From positions 1-25,422 of the IMG/VR virus record IMGVR_UViG_3300017743_000108: a stretch of 25,422 nt of DNA, one strand, 5' to 3'. Both the position numbers and the translations under genes were made by a program. Below the pieces are notes generated by a model. The model saw only the letters and a list, made by a program, of their open reading frames with translations. It was not told where the DNA came from and did no database searches. Origin of the DNA: a virus. Numbering within the stretch: position 1 is the first letter of the stretch; every line of letters starts with the position of its first letter. Shown here piece after piece: positions 1,438-19,834 of this stretch.

Positions 1438-1907
1438 AATTAATCAAAGTAATTAAAGACTTAGTAATCGAAGGTAAGCTTTCTGATTTTGGAGATAATA
1501 ATACTCCTGCTGCTCTTAAAAAAGAAAAAGAGATAAAAAACAAGAAAGTTAAACCTATGGATTCTTTAGAAGATTTAGATTTAAATACTTTAGGGAGAAA
1601 TGTTACTGTAAAAGAGTATAGATACGGACCTCTCAATCCGGACGATGAAAAAGGTTCTAAAACATTCTGGGAGGATAAAGCCGAGATGTGGGATACCACA
1701 GTTGAACATGCTAAGACTTCTAGATGTTCAAATTGTGTTGCTTTCAATCAAAAACCTGCTACTCTTAAAAAGATGGAAAAAGCTATTGGAGAAGAAGGTA
1801 AAAAAATAGTTAAAGAGGCTAATTTAGGCTTCTGTGAGTTCTTTTGGTTTAAATGTGCCGGTGCTAGAACTTGTGATGCTTGGGTAGCAGGAGGACCATT
1901 AAAATGA
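1434..1907 (+). CDS. Five-cysteine protein, possible metal or Fe-S binder
   Basis: This 157-residue protein overlaps the previous stop by 4 nt (ATGA). The N-terminus, MKLIKVIKDLVIEGKL, is a short amphipathic helix containing a glutamate-glycine pair reminiscent of phage prohead protease sites. Residues 30-45 are lysine-rich. The C-terminal half holds C98-x2-C101, C134, C141 and C147 within a compact block that ends TCDAWVAGGPLK. The CxxC plus spaced cysteines and aromatic residues (FCEFFWFKC) is compatible with a zinc site or an iron-sulphur cluster of the high-potential type. That assignment is an inference from pattern alone. The neighbours are other small accessory proteins. No enzymatic role is evident. 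Confidence 0.7.
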   Translation: MKLIKVIKDLVIEGKLSDFGDNNTPAALKKEKEIKNKKVKPMDSLEDLDLNTLGRNVTVKEYRYGPLNPDDEKGSKTFWEDKAEMWDTTVEHAKTSRCSNCVAFNQKPATLKKMEKAIGEEGKKIVKEANLGFCEFFWFKCAGARTCDAWVAGGPLK

Positions 1908-2572
1908 CAAAAAATCAATTAAGAGAGTTAGTAAGAGAGGTTCTTCAAGAAAGACTTTCCAAGCGAGTTTTACAGGAAGTCGGGGAAGCTAATGTTGAAC
2001 CTTACTCATGGCAAAAAGAAAAATCAAGCCGTGACTCTCTTGTTAATTACACATTCACCACAGATAGTCAAACAGATTATTTTATAAAATTTACTACTAT
2101 TGATAAAGGGGTTGAATGGGATATTAGCTTCTTTGTTGGCAAAGTTAGGAGTTCTTCTATAGTTGTAAATGAAGGAGAGTTATATAAAGTTATGTCCACT
2201 ATAACCGACATTACTTTAAGCTTTATTGACGAACATCCAGAGATACAAAGGCTTACCTACGATCCTACACCTTCAAAAGGAGACCCAGATATTGACAACC
2301 AGAGAGACAAACTTTATAGAAGGTATATTTTTAATAAGTTACCACATGCTAAAATAAGCGATGAGTCCGGCACAGTTACTGTTACTATAAAAGAAAACTA
2401 TGCTGACGGGAAAGTAAAAGGTAAATCTAGACCTGGCAGAGTTAAAAAAGCAGGAGCTTCATGTAAAGGTTCAGTTACTGACCTGAGAGCAAAAGCTAAG
2501 AAGTACGGAGGAGAGAAAGGTAAGATGTATCACTGGTGCGCTAATATGAAATCAGGTAAAAAGAAAAAATGA
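1904..2572 (+). CDS. Hypothetical protein with LREL-REVL N-terminal helix and MYHWCANMKSG C-terminus
   Basis: The frame is open from 1880, but the ATG at 1904 overlaps the previous stop in an ATGA arrangement and yields 222 residues. It begins MTKNQLRELVREVLQE, a helix nearly identical to the start of the small protein at 10985. The middle (about residues 30-150) looks like a globular alpha/beta domain I do not recognise. The C-terminal 40 residues are basic, with two cysteines: SCKGSVTDLRAKAKKYGG followed by GKMYHWCANMKSG. I recall this tail as a recurrent module in marine phage proteins. A GGAGG lies 10 nt before the start but is also codon content of the upstream gene. The function is unknown. 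An internal head protein is possible because of the N-terminal helix. Confidence 0.7.
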   Translation: MTKNQLRELVREVLQERLSKRVLQEVGEANVEPYSWQKEKSSRDSLVNYTFTTDSQTDYFIKFTTIDKGVEWDISFFVGKVRSSSIVVNEGELYKVMSTITDITLSFIDEHPEIQRLTYDPTPSKGDPDIDNQRDKLYRRYIFNKLPHAKISDESGTVTVTIKENYADGKVKGKSRPGRVKKAGASCKGSVTDLRAKAKKYGGEKGKMYHWCANMKSGKKKK

Positions 2573-10130: not shown

Positions 10131-10985
10131 ATGAAGATTAAACACTCTAAATTCCGTAATACCGGACTAATATATGAATTATTAGTAAAGCAGGTAGCGG
10201 CTGATACTCTGAATAACAAAGATTCAGCAGCCATTCCTATCTTGAAAAAATTCTTTAGTAAAAAGAGTGCTCTGACAAAAGAGTTAAACTTATACGAAGT
10301 TATATCTCGTAACACTTCTATCTCACAATCTAAAGCTGAAGCAGTACTGTCCACCATTACTGAAGTATCTAGAAGATTAAATTATAAATCTCTCAAAAAG
10401 CAAAAATACGATCTTATATCAGAGATTAAAAAACACTATAATGCAGATGAATTTTTTGCTATGCCTGTAAGGGATTATAAATCTTATGCTGCTCTATACT
10501 GTTTACTTGAAGCTCAAAATAATTTCGATTTAGTTGATCCTCAATATCTAATAGACAATAAGACAACTATATTAGAACATCTTACAAGTCAAAAACAGAA
10601 TAAAGATAATGTTAAAGATACTATAATAGAAGAGTATAGTAAATTTGACAAAGATTTAAAACTACTTACCTTTAAAATTCTTTTAGAGAAATTTAACAGT
10701 AAATACAAAAACCTACTTCCAGAGCAGAAATTTATACTCAAGGAGTTTATAACCTCAGTGGACTCTAATAAAAGGTTATCTAAACTTGTTAACGAGCAAG
10801 TAGATAGTATTAAGAGTACTTTACATGAATTAGTATTAGAAGTAAAAGACGAAGTAGTAAAGATAAAAATCCACGAGGTAATAAAAAATATTAAAACTCT
10901 TAATAACACACAGAAAGTTACAGATACACACTTAATTAATTTAATGCAATATTACGATTTAATTAAAGAGTTAAAAAGTATCTGA
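10131..10985 (+). CDS. Hypothetical helical protein between portal and protease
   Basis: This 284-residue protein is lysine-rich and predominantly helical, with no membrane segment or signal peptide. It starts MKIKHSKFRNTGLIYELLVK and shows repeated helical blocks throughout, ending in HLINLMQYYDLIKELKSI. I do not recognise a catalytic motif. In T4 the corresponding interval between genes 20 and 21 holds small prohead core genes (67 and 68), so a head-assembly role is suggested by position, but the protein is much larger and I see no sequence match to either. Its stop overlaps the next start by one base (TGATG), implying coupled translation. Confidence 0.65.
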   Translation: MKIKHSKFRNTGLIYELLVKQVAADTLNNKDSAAIPILKKFFSKKSALTKELNLYEVISRNTSISQSKAEAVLSTITEVSRRLNYKSLKKQKYDLISEIKKHYNADEFFAMPVRDYKSYAALYCLLEAQNNFDLVDPQYLIDNKTTILEHLTSQKQNKDNVKDTIIEEYSKFDKDLKLLTFKILLEKFNSKYKNLLPEQKFILKEFITSVDSNKRLSKLVNEQVDSIKSTLHELVLEVKDEVVKIKIHEVIKNIKTLNNTQKVTDTHLINLMQYYDLIKELKSI

Positions 10986-11242
10986 TGACTAAAAATAAAC
11001 TTAGAGAGTTAATAAGAGAGGTTCTTTCTGAATTACAAGAGGCAAATGTAACAGGAGGAACCGCAACTTTTTCACCCGGTACTGGAGCTCAATATGCAAC
11101 TCCTTTTGCTTTTTCAAAAAAAGGTAAAAAGAATAGAGCAACAAAATATGGTGAGAAATTAGGTTACACTACTGTAAAAAAGAAAAAAAGACCATACAAT
11201 ACTAAATTAGTAGACTACTTACATAATGAAAACAGTAACTGA
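10985..11242 (+). CDS. Small basic protein with LRELIREVL N-terminal helix
   Basis: This 85-residue protein begins MTKNKLRELIREVLSELQEA, almost the same helix as the protein at 1904. The helix contains two I/L-x-E signals (L-S-E and L-Q-E, the latter followed by A). After it comes a Gly/Thr-rich linker (NVTGGTATFSPGTGAQYATP) and then a very basic tail (KKGKKNRATKYG and VKKKKRP). The layout of a short targeting helix, then a predicted protease site, then a basic mature peptide parallels T4 internal head proteins, which are packed with DNA. That role is inference. It overlaps the next gene by 17 nt and lies in the portal-protease interval. Confidence 0.65.
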   Translation: MTKNKLRELIREVLSELQEANVTGGTATFSPGTGAQYATPFAFSKKGKKNRATKYGEKLGYTTVKKKKRPYNTKLVDYLHNENSN

Positions 11243-12711: not shown

Positions 12712-13290
12712 ATGTCACAACTTTTAGTAGACGTAACACCTTTCAAACCAATCATCAAAGAGTCTAAGTCTAGACCTGGAGTCTTTGAAGTTGAAGGTGT
12801 AATGCAGAGAGCAGGAGCTCAAAACCAAAACGGAAGAGTATACGAAAAGAAAATCCTCATGAGAGAAGTAAAGAAGTATATGGATGAGTTCGTTAATAAT
12901 GGGAATGCTTTCGGTGAATTAGATCACCCAGAATCTCCTGTAGTTTCTTTAAAAAATGCCTCTCATATTGTAAAAGACCTATATTGGAACGGAAACGACT
13001 TAATGGGTAAGGTAGAGCTGCTAAATACACCGGCCGGTAATATCGTAAAAGAGATTATAAAAGCCGGACATACTATAGGAATCAGTTCTAGAGGTACAGG
13101 TTCAGTACAACAAACAAACGAAGGGCATCTAGAGGTACAACCTGACTTTGAATTAGTATGTTGGGATTTTGTATCTAATCCATCAACACACGGTGCATTT
13201 ATGAACCCAGTTTCTTTAAATGAATCTAAGAAAATTATTAATAAATATAATAAAGTACATTCAATCATAAACGATATATTAAGAGCATAA
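12712..13290 (+). CDS. 21: Prohead core protease (gp21-like)
   Basis: This 192-residue serine protease matures the prohead by cutting scaffold, capsid and internal proteins after I/L-x-E. The family signature is clear: catalytic His72 in GELDHPESP, catalytic Ser125 or Ser126 in TIGISSRGTGS, and a downstream block ELVCWDFVSNPSTHGAF with the probable third residue D152. It is slightly shorter than T4 gp21 (212 residues). The C-terminus contains L169-N170-E171, a likely self-cleavage site. It lies one base after the preceding stop and just before a gene that precedes the scaffold, the usual setting. Assignment is from recognised motifs. Confidence 0.93.
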   Translation: MSQLLVDVTPFKPIIKESKSRPGVFEVEGVMQRAGAQNQNGRVYEKKILMREVKKYMDEFVNNGNAFGELDHPESPVVSLKNASHIVKDLYWNGNDLMGKVELLNTPAGNIVKEIIKAGHTIGISSRGTGSVQQTNEGHLEVQPDFELVCWDFVSNPSTHGAFMNPVSLNESKKIINKYNKVHSIINDILRA

Positions 13291-13293
13291 AAA

Positions 13294-14055
13294 ATGAAAA
13301 ATACTTTTGACTTAAGAAAATTCTTAACCGAGAATAAAAATAGTATTAAAGAAGAAAATATTAATGAACTCACAGGAGATCAGCAAGGAGCTATAATTGA
13401 ACTACAAGATATTTTAGATGAAGCCGCTCAATTAGGAGAACAAGCTAAAGAGATCTTTAGAGAGCATTTTCCTTCGTTAGTATCAAAAGGCGAGGCGTAT
13501 GGAGCTTTTGACTTAGGATCAAGTGCAAACAGATACGATACTACTATAGAATCTTTAATTGAAGATATATCACTGCTTGATGATGAAGAAGAGTATGATG
13601 AAGAAGATCTTGATGAAGAAGTAATAAATGAAGACATACTTACGGTACCACTTTTTCTTAAGTTTTTAGGTGCTATGGGTGTTCTAGCTACATTTAATCA
13701 AGCTTATAAGAAAGCTAAACAAGGACTATTCGGAAAAGCAACTCAGAAAATGGCAAACAGATTTTCCGGAGTTATTGATAAATTTATTGATAGAATTACC
13801 GAAGAAGAGGAAATGGAAGAATCAGCACCAGGATACGATCATGATTGTGCAGCACACGTCCTTCACGAAACGTACGGCTACGGTCTTTGTTTAGAAGGAA
13901 GACATACTTTAGTAGAGACTTCTAAAGGAAGAGCTGAAGTAACACATTATGATGTATTCTTTAAAAATGGAAGCAAAATTGTAGAGAATATTCCTGTAGC
14001 AGATTTAGTAATCGAAAGTATCGAAGAGCATCATCACGGTAAAAGAAAGAAGTAA
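13294..14055 (+). CDS. Hypothetical acidic protein between protease and scaffold
   Basis: This 253-residue protein starts MKNTFDLRKFLTENK, with a following I-N-E site at 23-25. Residues 28-95 are helical, and 96-112 is an Asp/Glu run. Residues 114-138 hold a hydrophobic stretch (LTVPLFLKFLGAMGVLATF) that could be a buried helix or a membrane segment. Residues 139-170 are amphipathic. The last 75 residues form a small domain with two cysteines (C185, C199) and beta-like strands (RAEVTHYDVFFKNGSKIVEN), ending in a His/Lys tail. It is the last gene before a strong terminator. Its position suggests a prohead core component. I do not recognise the family. Confidence 0.65.
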   Translation: MKNTFDLRKFLTENKNSIKEENINELTGDQQGAIIELQDILDEAAQLGEQAKEIFREHFPSLVSKGEAYGAFDLGSSANRYDTTIESLIEDISLLDDEEEYDEEDLDEEVINEDILTVPLFLKFLGAMGVLATFNQAYKKAKQGLFGKATQKMANRFSGVIDKFIDRITEEEEMEESAPGYDHDCAAHVLHETYGYGLCLEGRHTLVETSKGRAEVTHYDVFFKNGSKIVENIPVADLVIESIEEHHHGKRKK

Positions 14056-14213: not shown

Positions 14214-15209
14214 ATGAGTAAGGAATTATTCAAAAATGCTATTGCTGAAGCTAAATCAGTTAGAGAAGCAGCAATTGCGAATGCTAAAGAAGCATTAGAA
14301 GAAACTATTACTCCTCACTTGAAAGAGCTGCTTGCAGCAAAACTTCAAGAGATGGATGAAGTAGAAGAAGAAGTTATGGAAGAAGAAGTAGTTGAAGAAA
14401 CTATTGAAGAAGCAGACGGACTTAAAGAAGTTGAAGTTGCCGAAGCAGAAGAGGATGATGCAGAAGAAGCTGCAGACGATTCTGAAGAAGAGCACTCCGA
14501 AGAAGATCATTCAGAAGAAGATCATTCAGAAGGCGAGCCAGAAGGTGATGAAGACTTAGGAGACATTTCCGTTGAGCAATTCAAAGACTTAGTTCGTGAT
14601 ATCATCGCACAAGAAATGAGCGGAGAAGAGGAAGAAGAAATGGAACTTCCTATGGACGTTCAAGGAATGGGCGATGAAGAAATGGAAGAGCCTATCGGTG
14701 ATATGTCTGATGACGATGAAATTGATTTAGATGAAATGCTAAATGAAATTCTTGCAGAAGAAGAAATCGAAGAGGGATCTCACGACAAAGAAGAAATGGA
14801 AGAAGGTCATGATCATGATAAAGAAAAGATGGAAGAAGAGCTTAAAGAAGCTTTAGAAACTATCGATACTTTACGTCAAGATCTTCAAGAAGTTAATCTT
14901 CTAAATTCTAAACTACTTTATGTAAACAAAGTTTTTAAAGCTAACAACTTAACAGAATCTCAAAAAGCAAATGTTATTGCAGCATTTGACAAAGCAGAAA
15001 ATGTTAAAGAAGTTAAATTAGTTTTCGAAACTGTAAGTGAAAATGTTGTATCAAAACAAGCATCTAAACCTGCAAGATCAGTAAACGAATCTAAATTAGG
15101 AAGTGCTTCTAAAGCTACGGGAACGACAGCTAGAAGACCTCAAATTATTTCTGAATCTGACCAAGCAGTTTTACGTATGCAAAAGTTAGCTGGAATTATA
15201 AAAAATTAA
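14214..15209 (+). CDS. 22: Prohead core scaffold protein (gp22-like)
   Basis: This 331-residue scaffold forms the prohead core around which gp23 assembles and is then degraded by gp21. The start MSKELFKNAIAEA contains an I-A-E-A cleavage-type site. Residues 45-205 are extremely acidic (runs of Glu and Asp, several Met and His). A coiled coil at about 203-240 leads into the typical gp22 block VNLLNSKLLYVNKVFKANNL at 227-246 and a helical region KANVIAAFDKAENVKEVKLV. The C-terminus (TGTTARRPQII to the end) is conserved in style with gp22 proteins. It is longer than T4 gp22 (269 residues), mainly because of the acidic region. It has its own long leader and is co-transcribed with the capsid gene 19 nt downstream. 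Confidence 0.9.
   Translation: MSKELFKNAIAEAKSVREAAIANAKEALEETITPHLKELLAAKLQEMDEVEEEVMEEEVVEETIEEADGLKEVEVAEAEEDDAEEAADDSEEEHSEEDHSEEDHSEGEPEGDEDLGDISVEQFKDLVRDIIAQEMSGEEEEEMELPMDVQGMGDEEMEEPIGDMSDDDEIDLDEMLNEILAEEEIEEGSHDKEEMEEGHDHDKEKMEEELKEALETIDTLRQDLQEVNLLNSKLLYVNKVFKANNLTESQKANVIAAFDKAENVKEVKLVFETVSENVVSKQASKPARSVNESKLGSASKATGTTARRPQIISESDQAVLRMQKLAGIIKN
14499..14528 (+). repeat. Perfect 15-bp tandem duplication in the scaffold gene
   Basis: GAAGAAGATCATTCA occurs twice back to back (14499-14513 and 14514-14528), encoding EEDHS twice at residues 96-105. A degenerate EEEHS precedes it. The exact DNA identity suggests a recent slippage duplication inside the acidic low-complexity region. 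Confidence 0.85.
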
Positions 15210-15228: not shown

Positions 15229-16833
15229 ATGTTAGTAAATAATTTACTTGAAAGCTCTAATACTTATAAGAGCATGCAAGAAGACGCAGCAAGATTAAGC
15301 CAAAAATGGGCTAAATCAGGTCTTCTAGAAGGAATCGCTGACAACCGTGTTAAAGATAACATGGCAGTAATCCTTGAAAACCAAGCCAAGCAAATCGTTG
15401 CTGAGGCAAACACAACTGGAACTGGTGGATCTTTTTCTGCTGGAGCTGGAGAGCAGTGGGCAGGAGTTGCTTTACCGTTAGTACGTAAAGTATTCGCTTC
15501 TATCGTTGCTCAAGATTTCGTATCTGTACAACCAATGAACTTACCATCAGGTCTAGTATTCTATCTAGATTTTAAATACGGATCTGCAGTTAATGGAAGA
15601 AGCGCAGGAGACAATATGTACGGTAACGTATCTACAGCTGGAGATAAAATGGCAGTAGATGAGGATGTATCAGGAGGTCTTTACGGAGCTGGTCAGTTCG
15701 GATACTCGATCAACTCTCAATCTCATGCTTTATCTAGCTATAATGCTATCTACTCTGCATCTACTTCAGCTTCTATCAACTACCAAGATGGACTTAACCC
15801 TAGTGAATTCCATACATTTACAGTTAACTTCACAGGTACTAACTTTGATACAGAAGGAATTAGAGCATTTAGATTAATCTCAGGTTCTACTGACGTAACT
15901 TCTCATGCAGAATTAACTACAGTTAGCGGCAACTTTGTTAGTTTTGTTGTATCTGCTTCTGTAGCACCAGGTGCAGCTAACCTTACAGCTGGGAATGTAA
16001 GCTACCACAAACAACCAGGAGACGATTCAAGAGGAGACTTTGAAGCTAGTTCAACTGCTGCAGTTGATACTACTATTAGTATTCCAGAGATTGACGTACA
16101 ACTTGCAAGTGAAGCTATTGTTGCTAAGACAAGAAAATTAAAAGCTCAATGGACTCCAGAATTCGCTCAAGACCTTAACGCTTACCACAGCATCGACGCT
16201 GAGGCTGAGTTAACTTCTTTATTGAGTGAGTATATTTCAATGGAGATCGATCTTGAGATTTTAGACATGTTAATTAAAGGTGCTGTAACAACTGAGCGTT
16301 GGTCGGCAGTATCAAACAAAACTTGGAACGGTTCAGCTTGGACAACATCTGCTGTAGCAGACGGAGGATACTATAATACTCAAGGACAATGGTTCCAGAC
16401 TTTAGGAACTAAAATCCAAAAAGTATCTAACAAGATTCACCAAAAAACTTTAAGAGGTGGTGCAAACTTTGTAGTAGTATCTCCAACTGTTGCTACTGTA
16501 CTAGAATCTATCCCAGGGTATGCTGCTAATACTGACGGTGACAAAATGGAATTCAATATGGGTGTAGAAAGAGTTGGTTCATTAGCTAACCGATTCAAAG
16601 TATACAAGAATCCATATATGACTGAGAATACAATTCTTATGGGATATAGAGGTTCTCAATTCTTGGAAACTGGTGCTGTATATGCTCCTTACGTTCCTTT
16701 AATGATGACTCCTCTAGTGTATGACCCGGAAACATTCACACCAAGAAAAGGTTTAATGACTCGCTATGCGAAGAAAATGATTAGACCAGAATTCTACGGT
16801 AAGATCTTTGTATCTGATATCGGGACTATCTAA
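15229..16833 (+). CDS. 23: Major capsid protein (gp23-like)
   Basis: This 534-residue HK97-fold capsid protein is similar in length to T4 gp23 (521). Recognisable blocks include the N-terminal QKWAKSGLLEGIADN, VALPLVRKVFASIVAQDFVSV, then QPMNLPSGLVFYLDFKYG, the central TRKLKAQWTPEFAQDLNAYH, and the C-terminal block with PYVPLMMTPLVYDPETFTPR. The likely gp21 maturation cut is after E59 (IVAE before A60), removing an N-terminal propeptide of about the T4 size (65 residues). The variable insertion lies at about residues 150-280. It has no Shine-Dalgarno; the leader is A/T-rich. The gene is followed by a strong terminator, as expected for a highly expressed late gene. Confidence 0.96.
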   Translation: MLVNNLLESSNTYKSMQEDAARLSQKWAKSGLLEGIADNRVKDNMAVILENQAKQIVAEANTTGTGGSFSAGAGEQWAGVALPLVRKVFASIVAQDFVSVQPMNLPSGLVFYLDFKYGSAVNGRSAGDNMYGNVSTAGDKMAVDEDVSGGLYGAGQFGYSINSQSHALSSYNAIYSASTSASINYQDGLNPSEFHTFTVNFTGTNFDTEGIRAFRLISGSTDVTSHAELTTVSGNFVSFVVSASVAPGAANLTAGNVSYHKQPGDDSRGDFEASSTAAVDTTISIPEIDVQLASEAIVAKTRKLKAQWTPEFAQDLNAYHSIDAEAELTSLLSEYISMEIDLEILDMLIKGAVTTERWSAVSNKTWNGSAWTTSAVADGGYYNTQGQWFQTLGTKIQKVSNKIHQKTLRGGANFVVVSPTVATVLESIPGYAANTDGDKMEFNMGVERVGSLANRFKVYKNPYMTENTILMGYRGSQFLETGAVYAPYVPLMMTPLVYDPETFTPRKGLMTRYAKKMIRPEFYGKIFVSDIGTI

Positions 16834-17632: not shown

Positions 17633-18775
17633 ATGTCTCAAACTATTATATGGGCTGGTAGTTCGACCTTTTCCACCGGTCAAACACCATTTGGATTTTA
17701 CGATTCAGATACTGCTTTTCAAACAGATGCCGATAAAGTAGCAAGCTTTTGTGCTACTAGACTTGGATATCCACTTATGGATGTCGAATTGCAATCAGGT
17801 TCTTTTTATGCCTGTTTTGAAGAGGCAATCACTACTTACGGCAATGAGGTATTTCAATATAAAATAAGAGAAAACTACTTGAACTTAGAAGGATCATCAA
17901 CTGGTTCATCAGTTAATGGAGTTTTATTAGAACCTTCTTTGAATAGAACAGTAGAAATAAGTAAGAACTATGGAACTGAAGCAGGTGTAGGCGGTAATAT
18001 TACTAAGTATACAGGTTCTCTACTTGTTACCGCTTCACAACAGAACTATGACCTAGATGCCTGGGCTACAGATCAAGGGATCACAGGTTCTATAGAAGTA
18101 AGAAAGGTATTTTACGAAGCCCCTCCTGCAATTTTAAGGTACTTTGATCCTTATGCCGGTACAGGTACAGGGATACAGTCGTTAATGGATGCTTTCGATT
18201 TTGGATCATTTTCTCCTGGAGTAAATTTCTTATTGATGCCTGCATCTTTTGATATTTTAAAGGTTCAAGCAATAGAATTCAATGATCAAATAAGAAGATC
18301 ATCGTATTCTTTTGAGCTAGTTAACAACCAGTTAAAGTTATTTCCTATCCCAACTAATGGTGGTAGGTTATACTTCGAGTATTTTAAAGTTAATGATAAA
18401 AAAGCAGCAAGTATAGGTAGCGAACGTGGACTGGTAACTAATGTTGGAGAAGTGCCTTATAATAATCCAACTTACGCATATATAAACAGTGTAGGAAGAC
18501 AATGGATATTCAGATATTCACTTGCTTTAGCTAAGGAATTGCTTGGATACATAAGAGGTAAGTACCAAACAGTACAGATCCCAGGATCTGAAACTACTTT
18601 GAATCAAGCCGACTTACTTTCTGATGCAAGATCAGAAAAAGAGGCCTTAATTACTCAACTAAGAGAAATGTTAGAGCAAACTTCACGTCAAACTATGATG
18701 GAAAAGCAGGCTATGGAAGGAGAAAACCTTTCAAAGACGTTAAATCAAGTTCCAATGACAATATACATAGGATAA
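17633..18775 (+). CDS. 13: Neck protein (gp13-like)
   Basis: This 380-residue protein matches the gp13 neck family of marine T4-like phages. It has an N-terminal helical part (VASFCATRLGYPLMDVELQS, FEEAITTYGNEVFQYKIREN), a middle region with SFDILKVQAIEFNDQIRRSS, and a conserved C-terminal half around WIFRYSLALAKELLGYIRGK, then a helical tail ending MTIYIG. In T4, gp13 and gp14 close the filled head and prepare it for tail joining. It is about 70 residues longer than T4 gp13, through the Ser/Thr/Gly-rich insert near residues 85-135. It leads the last transcription unit and lies 3 nt before the next gene. Confidence 0.85.
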   Translation: MSQTIIWAGSSTFSTGQTPFGFYDSDTAFQTDADKVASFCATRLGYPLMDVELQSGSFYACFEEAITTYGNEVFQYKIRENYLNLEGSSTGSSVNGVLLEPSLNRTVEISKNYGTEAGVGGNITKYTGSLLVTASQQNYDLDAWATDQGITGSIEVRKVFYEAPPAILRYFDPYAGTGTGIQSLMDAFDFGSFSPGVNFLLMPASFDILKVQAIEFNDQIRRSSYSFELVNNQLKLFPIPTNGGRLYFEYFKVNDKKAASIGSERGLVTNVGEVPYNNPTYAYINSVGRQWIFRYSLALAKELLGYIRGKYQTVQIPGSETTLNQADLLSDARSEKEALITQLREMLEQTSRQTMMEKQAMEGENLSKTLNQVPMTIYIG

Positions 18776-18778
18776 AGC

Positions 18779-19081
18779 ATGAAACTACAGGAGATAATAG
18801 CAGAAATACAGTATATGACCTATGAATCAATGGCAGAAGTGTCATTTAGTGAGTCTAGTGCTACTAAAGTAGCTGAATTATTAAGAGCCTTACCTGGAGT
18901 TACAACTGTTGCTATCGCAGGAGGTTTTGAAGATAATTCTGACAAAGAAATTTATAAAATAAAACTTATAACACAGAAATCTGGTATTGAAGCATTTACA
19001 GCTTTTAAAAATAACGCACTTAGTAAATATAGTGTGGTAAAAGGTATAAATGTAGCAGATAAAAACATAGTTAAGCTGTAA
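18779..19081 (+). CDS. Small protein with capsid-targeting-like N-terminus
   Basis: This 100-residue protein lies between the gp13 and gp14 genes. It begins MKLQEIIAEIQYM, which closely resembles the T4 internal-protein capsid targeting sequence MKTYQEFIAEA. From residue 28 it shows an alpha-beta pattern (KVAELLRALPGVTTVAIAGG, then YKIKLIT, then a helix) that looks like a small ferredoxin-like or ACT-like fold. I recall similar proteins in marine phages without function. Either it is a packed internal protein cleaved near E9, or it is a neck accessory factor as its position suggests. It overlaps the next start by one base. Confidence 0.65.
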   Translation: MKLQEIIAEIQYMTYESMAEVSFSESSATKVAELLRALPGVTTVAIAGGFEDNSDKEIYKIKLITQKSGIEAFTAFKNNALSKYSVVKGINVADKNIVKL

Positions 19082-19569
19082 TGATATTTGGATCTAATAA
19101 TGATTTTAAACTTTTTAATCGAATCAACCGTGAATTTCTCAAAGAAGTGGTTGAACAGGAGATCCTGTATTATAAATTTAGTTTAGAAGAGTCATTAACT
19201 AATATCTACGGAGAATCAGCAGCAAAAAAGTACTGGACCCCGGTTAAGCTTTACTGTTTAATAACTAGAGGTGATCAAGTCGTTACTACTGACGATTTCG
19301 GACCGGATTTAAACAGAGATGCATCGTTTGCATTTCTAAGACAAGATTTAGTAGATACTTCTGTAGTTCCTGAAGTAGGAGACATATTAATGTGGCACGA
19401 AGACTATTATGAAGTAGATACAGTAAGAGAAAACCAATTATTTTTAGGAAAAGATAACAATTATAATTTAACCGATTATGGATCTCAATTTGGAGCATCA
19501 GTTTCAATCATAGTTGATACCCATATGACAAGAAGAGAAAGAACAGGAATAGAATATGAAAATATTTAA
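19081..19569 (+). CDS. Neck / head-closure protein (gp14-like)
   Basis: This 162-residue protein has the features I associate with gp14-type neck proteins of marine T4-like phages: LFNRINREFLKEVVEQEILY near the N-terminus, NIYGESAAKKYWTPVKLYCL, DDFGPDLNRDASFAFLRQDL in the middle, and PEVGDILMWHEDYYEVDTVR before ENQLFLGKDNNYN. It is shorter than T4 gp14 (256 residues). Position next to gp13 supports a role in closing the DNA-filled head and forming the connector for the tail. The family is recognised from memory, so the exact gene number is uncertain. It overlaps the next gene by 14 nt. Confidence 0.65.
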   Translation: MIFGSNNDFKLFNRINREFLKEVVEQEILYYKFSLEESLTNIYGESAAKKYWTPVKLYCLITRGDQVVTTDDFGPDLNRDASFAFLRQDLVDTSVVPEVGDILMWHEDYYEVDTVRENQLFLGKDNNYNLTDYGSQFGASVSIIVDTHMTRRERTGIEYENI

Positions 19570-19834
19570 CATACTTTTTGAAAAGAATAAAGATCCGTAC
19601 GGTCACAAGCTAGTATCTAAAGGAATTGACCCTGAAACCGGAGCAGTTTCATCAGATGTAGTTTATACTCCTTTACGTAGAGTAAAAGTTAACTTAGATA
19701 TGATGAACGAAGACTTAATAGAAGCCGTTCGAGAGCATCCAGAAGACCCTAAATTGTTAGAGTTACAGAAAACTTTTGAAAGTTTTAAAAGAGACTTTAA
19801 CAGGCATACTAATAAGGTATACGGAAAAATCTAA
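19556..19834 (+). CDS. Small hypothetical protein in neck cluster
   Basis: This 92-residue protein begins MKIFNILFEKNKD, another short N-terminal helix ending L-F-E. It continues with a beta-like DPETGAVSSDVVYTPLRRVK and a helical C-terminus (HPEDPKLLELQKTFESFKRD). There is no membrane segment or catalytic motif. Its overlap with the gp14-like gene and the 10-nt gap to the gp15-like gene place it in the neck operon. I do not recognise the family. A neck accessory or internal head role is possible. Confidence 0.6.
   Translation: MKIFNILFEKNKDPYGHKLVSKGIDPETGAVSSDVVYTPLRRVKVNLDMMNEDLIEAVREHPEDPKLLELQKTFESFKRDFNRHTNKVYGKI

What the first reader, a model, noticed from the sequence alone, without database searches (positions are those of the whole stretch)
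18779..18817. Near-copy of the T4 capsid targeting sequence on a gene between gp13 and gp14
MKLQEIIAEIQYM aligns with MKTYQEFIAEA at M, K, QE, I, A and E. The following 90 residues look like a compact alpha/beta domain. A capsid-targeted protein encoded within the neck cluster would be unexpected, and could mark an ejected effector or a core component.
Basis: partly seen in the sequence, partly recalled or inferred. Interest (0 to 1): 0.5.

Follow-up and report, generated by a model that had tools for sequence, protein, structure and literature searches.

The report
Phage neck-operon protein with capsid-targeting-like tip
A small protein encoded between two neck genes of an uncultured T4-related phage starts with a short, conserved peptide resembling the address label that sends proteins into the T4 head; it is probably a docking tag on an assembly protein rather than the mark of an injected effector.

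Summary
ORF 18779-19081 starts MKLQEIIAE and lies between a gp13 homologue and a gp14-like gene. It resembles the T4 IPII/IPIII peptide MKTYQEFIAE better than any of 225 proteins of a relative. The letters QE are private to the window, but the pattern is not: in 45 family members residues 3, 6, 7 and 9 are conserved while 4, 5 and 8 drift. Shifted by one, these are the T4 residues that matter for targeting and processing. AlphaFold gives a ferredoxin-like domain (13-92) with a less certain helix (3-9) outside it. The gene keeps one place in its lineage, usually overlapping both neighbours by one base. The N-terminal pattern recurs on the major capsid protein and on a small unrelated downstream protein, but not on gp13, gp14, gp15, PhoH, scaffold or protease.

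Cleavage after E9 is doubtful: the next residue is mostly V, I or L, whereas other likely sites have A, S or G. Best reading: a docking peptide on a neck or portal-vertex assembly protein; an ejected effector is unlikely. Virion data are missing. In passing: a separate N-terminal tag, RMQxLAGIITE, on dozens of unrelated phage proteins.

The parts
18779..18805 (+). N-terminal peptide MKLQEIIAE (residues 1-9), CTS-like docking motif
   Evidence: conservation of residues 3, 6, 7, 9; helix 3-9 with block pLDDT 68
18779..19081 (+). 100-aa gene of the family studied here
   Evidence: in 64 of 66 scored loci, always next to the gp14-like gene
18815..19054 (+). predicted ferredoxin-like domain (strand-helix-strand-strand-helix-strand, residues 13-92)
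   Evidence: AlphaFold2 model; VIA-align Z up to 9.4 over 84 residues, model range 11-100
17633..18775 (+). gp13-like head-tail adaptor (Ad2)
   Evidence: phrog_211 E 9.1e-14; T4 gp13 in PDB E 5.2e-09; hhalign 95%
19081..19569 (+). gp14-like head-closure gene (162 aa)
   Evidence: low-confidence AlphaFold model (pLDDT 64.7), whose best Foldseek matches are T4 gp20-gp14-gp13 and portal-neck-tail entries and many other phage neck proteins; no sequence match
19556..19834 (+). 92-aa gene with the same N-terminal pattern (MKIFNILFE) and an unrelated body
15229..16833 (+). gp23-like major capsid protein; N-terminus MLVNNLLE has the same pattern; likely prohead-protease site IVAE|A at residues 56-59
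   Evidence: phrog_138 E 2.8e-75; N-termini; motif count; the site is inferred from the motif
12712..13290 (+). gp21-like prohead protease (Peptidase_S77)
   Evidence: PF03420 E 1.6e-34; phrog_207 E 4.9e-55
14214..15209 (+). acidic scaffold-like protein next to the capsid gene; its C-terminus RMQKLAGIIKN matches an N-terminal tag of other phage proteins
   Evidence: scaffold role inferred from position and composition (no PHROG match)

Best explanation
It is a lineage-specific assembly protein of the head-tail neck region: a ferredoxin-like domain carried behind a separable nine-residue amphipathic docking peptide. Shown by computation: the family, its fixed place between the gp13-like and gp14-like genes, the overlapping start and stop codons, the predicted domain fold, and the conserved pattern h3-x-x-h6-h7-x-E9. 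Inferred: the peptide docks onto the same prohead-core surface that the capsid protein's N-terminus meets, bringing the domain to the portal vertex of the prohead; it therefore works like the targeting half of a T4 capsid targeting sequence. Inferred and less likely: the gp21-like protease later cuts after E9. The gene is made together with gp13 and gp14, so the domain probably acts where these assemble, not in the next host.
For: (1) Conservation of the peptide: weighted entropy 1.50 bits for residues 2-9 against 1.83 for 10-100; E9 is among the most conserved columns; residues 3, 6, 7 and 9 are conserved while 4, 5 and 8 drift. In T4 IPIII residues 4 and 7 serve targeting and 8 and 10 processing (PMC9026906 passages), which is the same set shifted by one. 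(2) [LI]xE occurs in the first 13 residues of 44 of 45 members, against 39 of 233 immuto proteins. (3) The pattern M.{1,2}h..hh.?E fits 13 of 13 distinct capsid-protein N-termini, 30 of 36 of this family and 10 of 12 of the 92-aa neighbour; it fits 0 of 24 gp13, 0 of 29 gp14-like, 0 of 26 gp15-like, 0 of 14 PhoH, 0 of 8 scaffold, 0 of 6 protease, 0 of 2 g10131, 0 of 1 portal and 0 of 1 terminase; background 25 of 671 proteins in three genomes. (4) AlphaFold places the helix outside the domain with the lowest confidence of the chain, and several solved folds start at model residue 10-14. (5) The phage has a gp21-type protease. (6) Synteny: 64 of 66 loci hold the gene, all 64 beside the gp14-like gene; its start overlaps the gp13-like stop by one base in 54 of 60.
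Against: The residue after E9 is V in 19, I in 12 and L in 3 of 45, and only 7 of 45 have a small residue there, while likely sites elsewhere in the lineage mostly have A, S or G. In T4 the neck is added after packaging (PMC9026906 passages), so a core-targeting tag on a neck protein is not required. The pattern in (3) was written after seeing the sequences and is loose; a short N-terminal amphipathic helix can fit it by chance. The gene is absent from the Microcystis phage Mel-JY01, Rhodothermus phage RM378, LR756508 and T4 records, so it is not needed for such heads in general. A docking helix for gp13 or gp14 would also be conserved.
Confidence: 0.42

Rival explanations
1. A plain neck component or neck assembly factor: the ferredoxin-like domain forms part of, or chaperones, the gp13/gp14 connector, and the N-terminal helix docks on gp13, gp14 or portal. 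It never enters the prohead and is never cut.
For: Fixed place directly between the two neck genes in 60 loci, mostly with overlapping codons. T4 gp13 and gp14 pre-assemble and even borrow host Hfq as a transient assembly factor (PMC12270204, abstract and passages), so an extra small factor there is plausible. Hydrophobic residue after E9.
Against: Does not explain why the capsid protein and the 92-aa protein share the pattern while the neck proteins gp13 and gp14 lack it.
Confidence: 0.36
2. A cleaved, ejected effector or internal protein in the strict T4 sense: targeted by residues 1-9, cut after E9, packed with DNA and injected.
For: Close letter match to the T4 IPII/IPIII peptide; [LI]xE in 44 of 45.
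Against: Synteny and coupling with neck genes; near-neutral net charge in the window protein (0, or +1 without the peptide) whereas T4 internal proteins and their substitutes are described as basic (PMC9026906 passages); unusual residue after the cut site.
Confidence: 0.08
3. No targeting at all: an ordinary N-terminal helix of a small domain whose likeness to the T4 peptide is chance.
For: The literal QE letters are private to the window; the pattern is short; about 3.7% of proteins in three genomes (25 of 671) fit it.
Against: Residues 2-9 are more conserved than the domain, with E9 nearly invariant, and the helix is not predicted to pack in the fold.
Confidence: 0.14

Closest known systems
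T4 capsid targeting sequence of IPII/IPIII (MKTYQEFIAEA)
   Same: N-terminal; hydrophobics and Glu at matching relative positions; L/I-x-E; a gp21-type protease is encoded in the same cluster
   Different: One residue shorter; hydrophobic instead of small residue after Glu; sits on a conserved, syntenic neck-operon protein; packaging and cleavage not shown
Flavobacterium phage immuto gp60 (YP_010114623.1) and its relatives in IMG/VR
   Same: Same family (27% identity to the window protein by tblastn), same place after the putative head completion protein
   Different: Peptide is two residues shorter (MRKLVNE); annotated only as hypothetical protein
T4 neck proteins gp13/gp14 with host Hfq
   Same: Same genome neighbourhood and, by inference, same assembly site
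   Different: No sequence relation of this family to gp13, gp14, gp15, gp3 or gp4; T4 has no gene in between
Ferredoxin-like folds (EF1-beta exchange domain, HMA domains, circularly permuted S6)
   Same: Same strand-helix order over residues 10-100
   Different: Common fold, no sequence relation, no function implied

Membership tests
T4-type CTS-bearing head protein | N-terminal ~10-residue peptide with targeting residues (T4 4, 7) and processing residues (T4 8, 10) | tested here: met
   conserved at 3, 6, 7, 9 in 45 members; T4 numbering from passages of PMC9026906
T4-type CTS-bearing head protein | L/I-x-E protease motif at the end of the peptide | tested here: met
   44 of 45 members
T4-type CTS-bearing head protein | residue after Glu like the other likely protease sites of the phage (A, S, G) | tested here: not met
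   small residue in 7 of 45 against mostly A/S/G in capsid, scaffold and protease sites
T4-type CTS-bearing head protein | same peptide on proteins with unrelated bodies | tested here: inconclusive
   pattern shared with capsid protein and 92-aa protein, but the regular expression is loose and post hoc
T4-type CTS-bearing head protein | gp21-type protease encoded | tested here: met
   PF03420 E 1.6e-34 at 12712-13290
T4-type CTS-bearing head protein | cleaved in virions and located inside the head | not testable with these tools
   needs mass spectrometry of virions and proheads
gp13 or gp14 neck protein | sequence homology to T4 gp13, gp14, gp15, gp3 or gp4 | tested here: not met
   hhalign of the family profile against 18 T4 proteins: best 4.6% probability
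ferredoxin-like fold | strand-helix-strand-strand-helix-strand domain | tested here: met
   (Z 9.4, rmsd 2.7, 84 residues), on a predicted model

The most novel reading that the evidence does not exclude
This lineage uses several short N-terminal peptides as address labels for the prohead (RMQxLAGIITE; FDLxxFLTEN; LRxLIREVL; and this h..hh.E peptide, also on the capsid protein). One of them delivers a neck-operon protein to the inner face of the portal vertex, so that a component made with gp13 and gp14 is loaded from inside before packaging.
Probability: 0.18. Interest if true: 0.7.

Novelty: new variant of a known kind. Interest (0 to 1): 0.42.

Why it matters
Capsid targeting by a short N-terminal peptide was worked out in T4. 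A conserved CTS-like peptide on a neck-operon protein, with the same pattern on the capsid protein, would show how targeting looks in a group of mostly uncultured T4-like phages related to Flavobacterium phage immuto, and whether the neck region is partly loaded from inside. Immuto phages on Flavobacterium sp. LMO8 make this testable.

Tried and rejected
Family libraries: no confident Pfam or PHROG match for the protein; scanning all 45 members against PHROGs gave only weak scattered hits, best E 0.0048. PDB sequence search of the profile: nothing (best E 0.28).

Relatives outside the lineage: none in genome contigs. In the phages collection the window, L042 and L051 members find the four immuto records; two weak further matches for L042 (Pseudomonas phage) and two for L065 (Lactobacillus phage) were judged chance. 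In the whole records of Mel-JY01, RM378, LR756508 and T4 the profile finds nothing.

Considered and rejected: internal start at Met13 (not conserved); relation to a T4 protein (18 compared); an ejected effector (see rivals).

Rows dropped: of 47 distinct family sequences, L023 and L063 were left out of A2 because the contig edge cuts their N-termini. In one search, L073 and L074 are refetches of L013 and L021, and L026 is the same genome as L004. In one search loci whose ORF starts at the contig edge, or whose alignment misses the N-terminus, were left out. The late/early border and the pattern were chosen after seeing the data. My simple gene calls for two genomes missed this gene in one of them (G001).

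Literature: one search searched three exact strings of the RMQxLAGIITE tag in open-access papers and found none; one search searched related words without a relevant hit. PMC7077304 (passages) does not mention immuto or mass spectrometry. PMC3012670 was seen as passages; all other papers as search listings only.

Full report
What is there. The window is a T4-like head and neck cluster: terminase, portal (Portal_T4, E 2.8e-71), a gp21-type protease, a scaffold-like gene, a gp23-type capsid protein, PhoH, and a gp13-like adaptor. The capsid protein is 70% identical to that of Flavobacterium phage immuto. The gene of the finding, 18779-19081, encodes 100 residues starting MKLQEIIAE and ends on the first base of the next gene. 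That next gene has no sequence match. Its low-confidence model (pLDDT 64.7) nevertheless has T4 gp14-containing and many other phage neck structures as best Foldseek matches, so I take it as gp14-like.

Is the likeness to the T4 peptide real? The T4 peptide was read from the T4 record: IPII and IPIII both begin MKTYQEFIAEA. The window peptide scores 25 against it. None of 225 immuto proteins reach this and 23 of 46,600 shuffled N-termini do. The exact Q is not kept even in the two nearest relatives, which read MKLGEIIAE, so the letter match is partly luck.

The family. Searches gave relatives in immuto and many IMG/VR contigs. Of 66 scored loci 64 hold the gene; the two without it are Mel-JY01 (L005) and a contig that begins inside the gp14-like gene (L064). 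All 64 have the gp14-like gene directly after it, and 60 have the gp13-like gene directly before it; in the other four (L023, L039, L043, L063) the contig ends there. Its start overlaps the gp13-like stop by one base in 54 of 60, and its stop overlaps the gp14-like start the same way in 60 of 64. It is absent from four more distant records.

The peptide is under constraint. On 45 members (two edge-cut ones dropped; about 15 effective sequences) residues 2-9 have mean entropy 1.50 bits, residues 10-100 1.83. Positions 3, 6, 7 and 9 have 0.81, 1.06, 1.00 and 0.35, while 4, 5 and 8 have 2.51, 2.80 and 2.37. In T4 IPIII the first ten residues are what incorporation requires, residues 4 and 7 serve targeting, 8 and 10 processing, and the protease recognises L/I-x-E (passages of PMC9026906). 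The conserved set here is the T4 set shifted by one.

The peptide is not part of the predicted fold. AlphaFold2 with the 45-row alignment gives helix 3-9 (first block pLDDT 68) and a ferredoxin-like domain from residue 13 to 92 at high confidence. Structural matches cover residues 10-100 and several solved proteins begin at model residue 10-14. The fold is common and implies no function.

Who else carries it. A pattern M.{1,2}h..hh.?E, written after seeing the sequences, fits 13 of 13 distinct capsid-protein N-termini, 30 of 36 of this family and 10 of 12 of the 92-aa protein downstream, which has an unrelated body. It fits none of gp13 (24), gp14-like (29), gp15-like (26; named by position and a weak 17.9% hhalign match), PhoH (14), scaffold (8), protease (6), g10131 (2), portal (1) or terminase (1). 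Background is 25 of 671 proteins in three genomes, including some of these very genes. In immuto, hhxE-type N-termini are 21 of 233 against 10.9 in shuffles, and commoner among late genes (14 of 84) than early ones (7 of 149) (the border was set by eye).

Against cleavage. Likely protease sites of the lineage read [IL]V[AST]E|A in most capsid proteins, AIAE|A in most scaffolds and LKE|S in most proteases. In this family the residue after E9 is V, I or L in 34 of 45. Targeting without cutting, or no prohead entry at all, fits this better than a T4-style propeptide.

What it most likely does. The gene order and overlaps say it is made with gp13 and gp14 and acts where they assemble. The peptide says it docks by a short motif resembling the capsid protein's N-terminus, which by T4 analogy faces the core (recalled, not tested here). 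I therefore favour a docking peptide that brings a small assembly protein to the prohead portal vertex (0.42), with a purely external neck role close behind (0.36). T4 gives a precedent for an accessory neck factor: host Hfq binds gp14 transiently during assembly (PMC12270204, abstract and passages).

A wider lead. Comparing first-30-residue segments of proteins with unrelated bodies in immuto, two relatives and the window gave 54 strong pairs against 0 after one shuffle. Some pairs are remote homologues that the body filter missed. The clear tag groups are FDLxxFLTEN (window 13294), LRxLIREVL (window 1904 and 10985) and MKKQILSEQFxRMQxLAGIITES. In the 80 listed, 91 of 92 occurrences are N-terminal; 90 bodies fall into 53 unrelated clusters, and the residue after ITE is G, S or N in 88 of 92. 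The scaffold-like proteins of the window lineage end in the same kind of peptide, RMQKLAGII. One match was found in the collection of 84,980 species genomes, in a Fluviicola MAG. This looks like a capsid-targeting tag with a cleavable end; that role is inferred, and the finding's own peptide lacks its small residue after the Glu.

Noticed in passing
window 14214-15209 (C-terminus 15174-15206); loci L095-L174; immuto 25061 and 111675: Peptide RMQxLAGIITE is an N-terminal tag on dozens of unrelated uncultured-phage proteins (91 of 92 occurrences N-terminal, 53 body clusters, next residue G/S/N in 88 of 92), and the scaffold-like protein of this lineage ends in the same RMQKLAGII. A likely capsid-targeting tag with a built-in I-x-E protease site; ten tagged bodies had no match above a Pfam cut-off.
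   Followed up: partly
window 13294-14055; immuto 1803, 103806, 117631, 118632: Shared N-terminal segment FDLxxFL[TVS]EN[KR]LT-like on proteins with unrelated bodies.
   Followed up: partly
window 1904-2572 and 10985-11242; immuto 102294, 102880, 113188: Shared N-terminal segment of the type LRxLIREVL / KKSxLxxIIKExL on unrelated proteins.
   Followed up: no
window 19556-19834: 92-aa protein with the same N-terminal pattern as the finding (MKIFNILFE; relatives MKIKDILKE, MKLTDLLEE), followed by a DPETGxxxxxVEYTPL-like stretch; present in only part of the lineage.
   Followed up: partly
L004 12300-12848 (immuto NC_055915): The gp14-like gene is missing from the immuto annotation; two short reverse-strand ORFs are annotated in its place and the next gene's start appears to be set too early.
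   Followed up: partly
L065: In this divergent contig the capsid protein, the family member and the 92-aa protein all carry one extra residue before the h..hh pattern; one case only.
   Followed up: no
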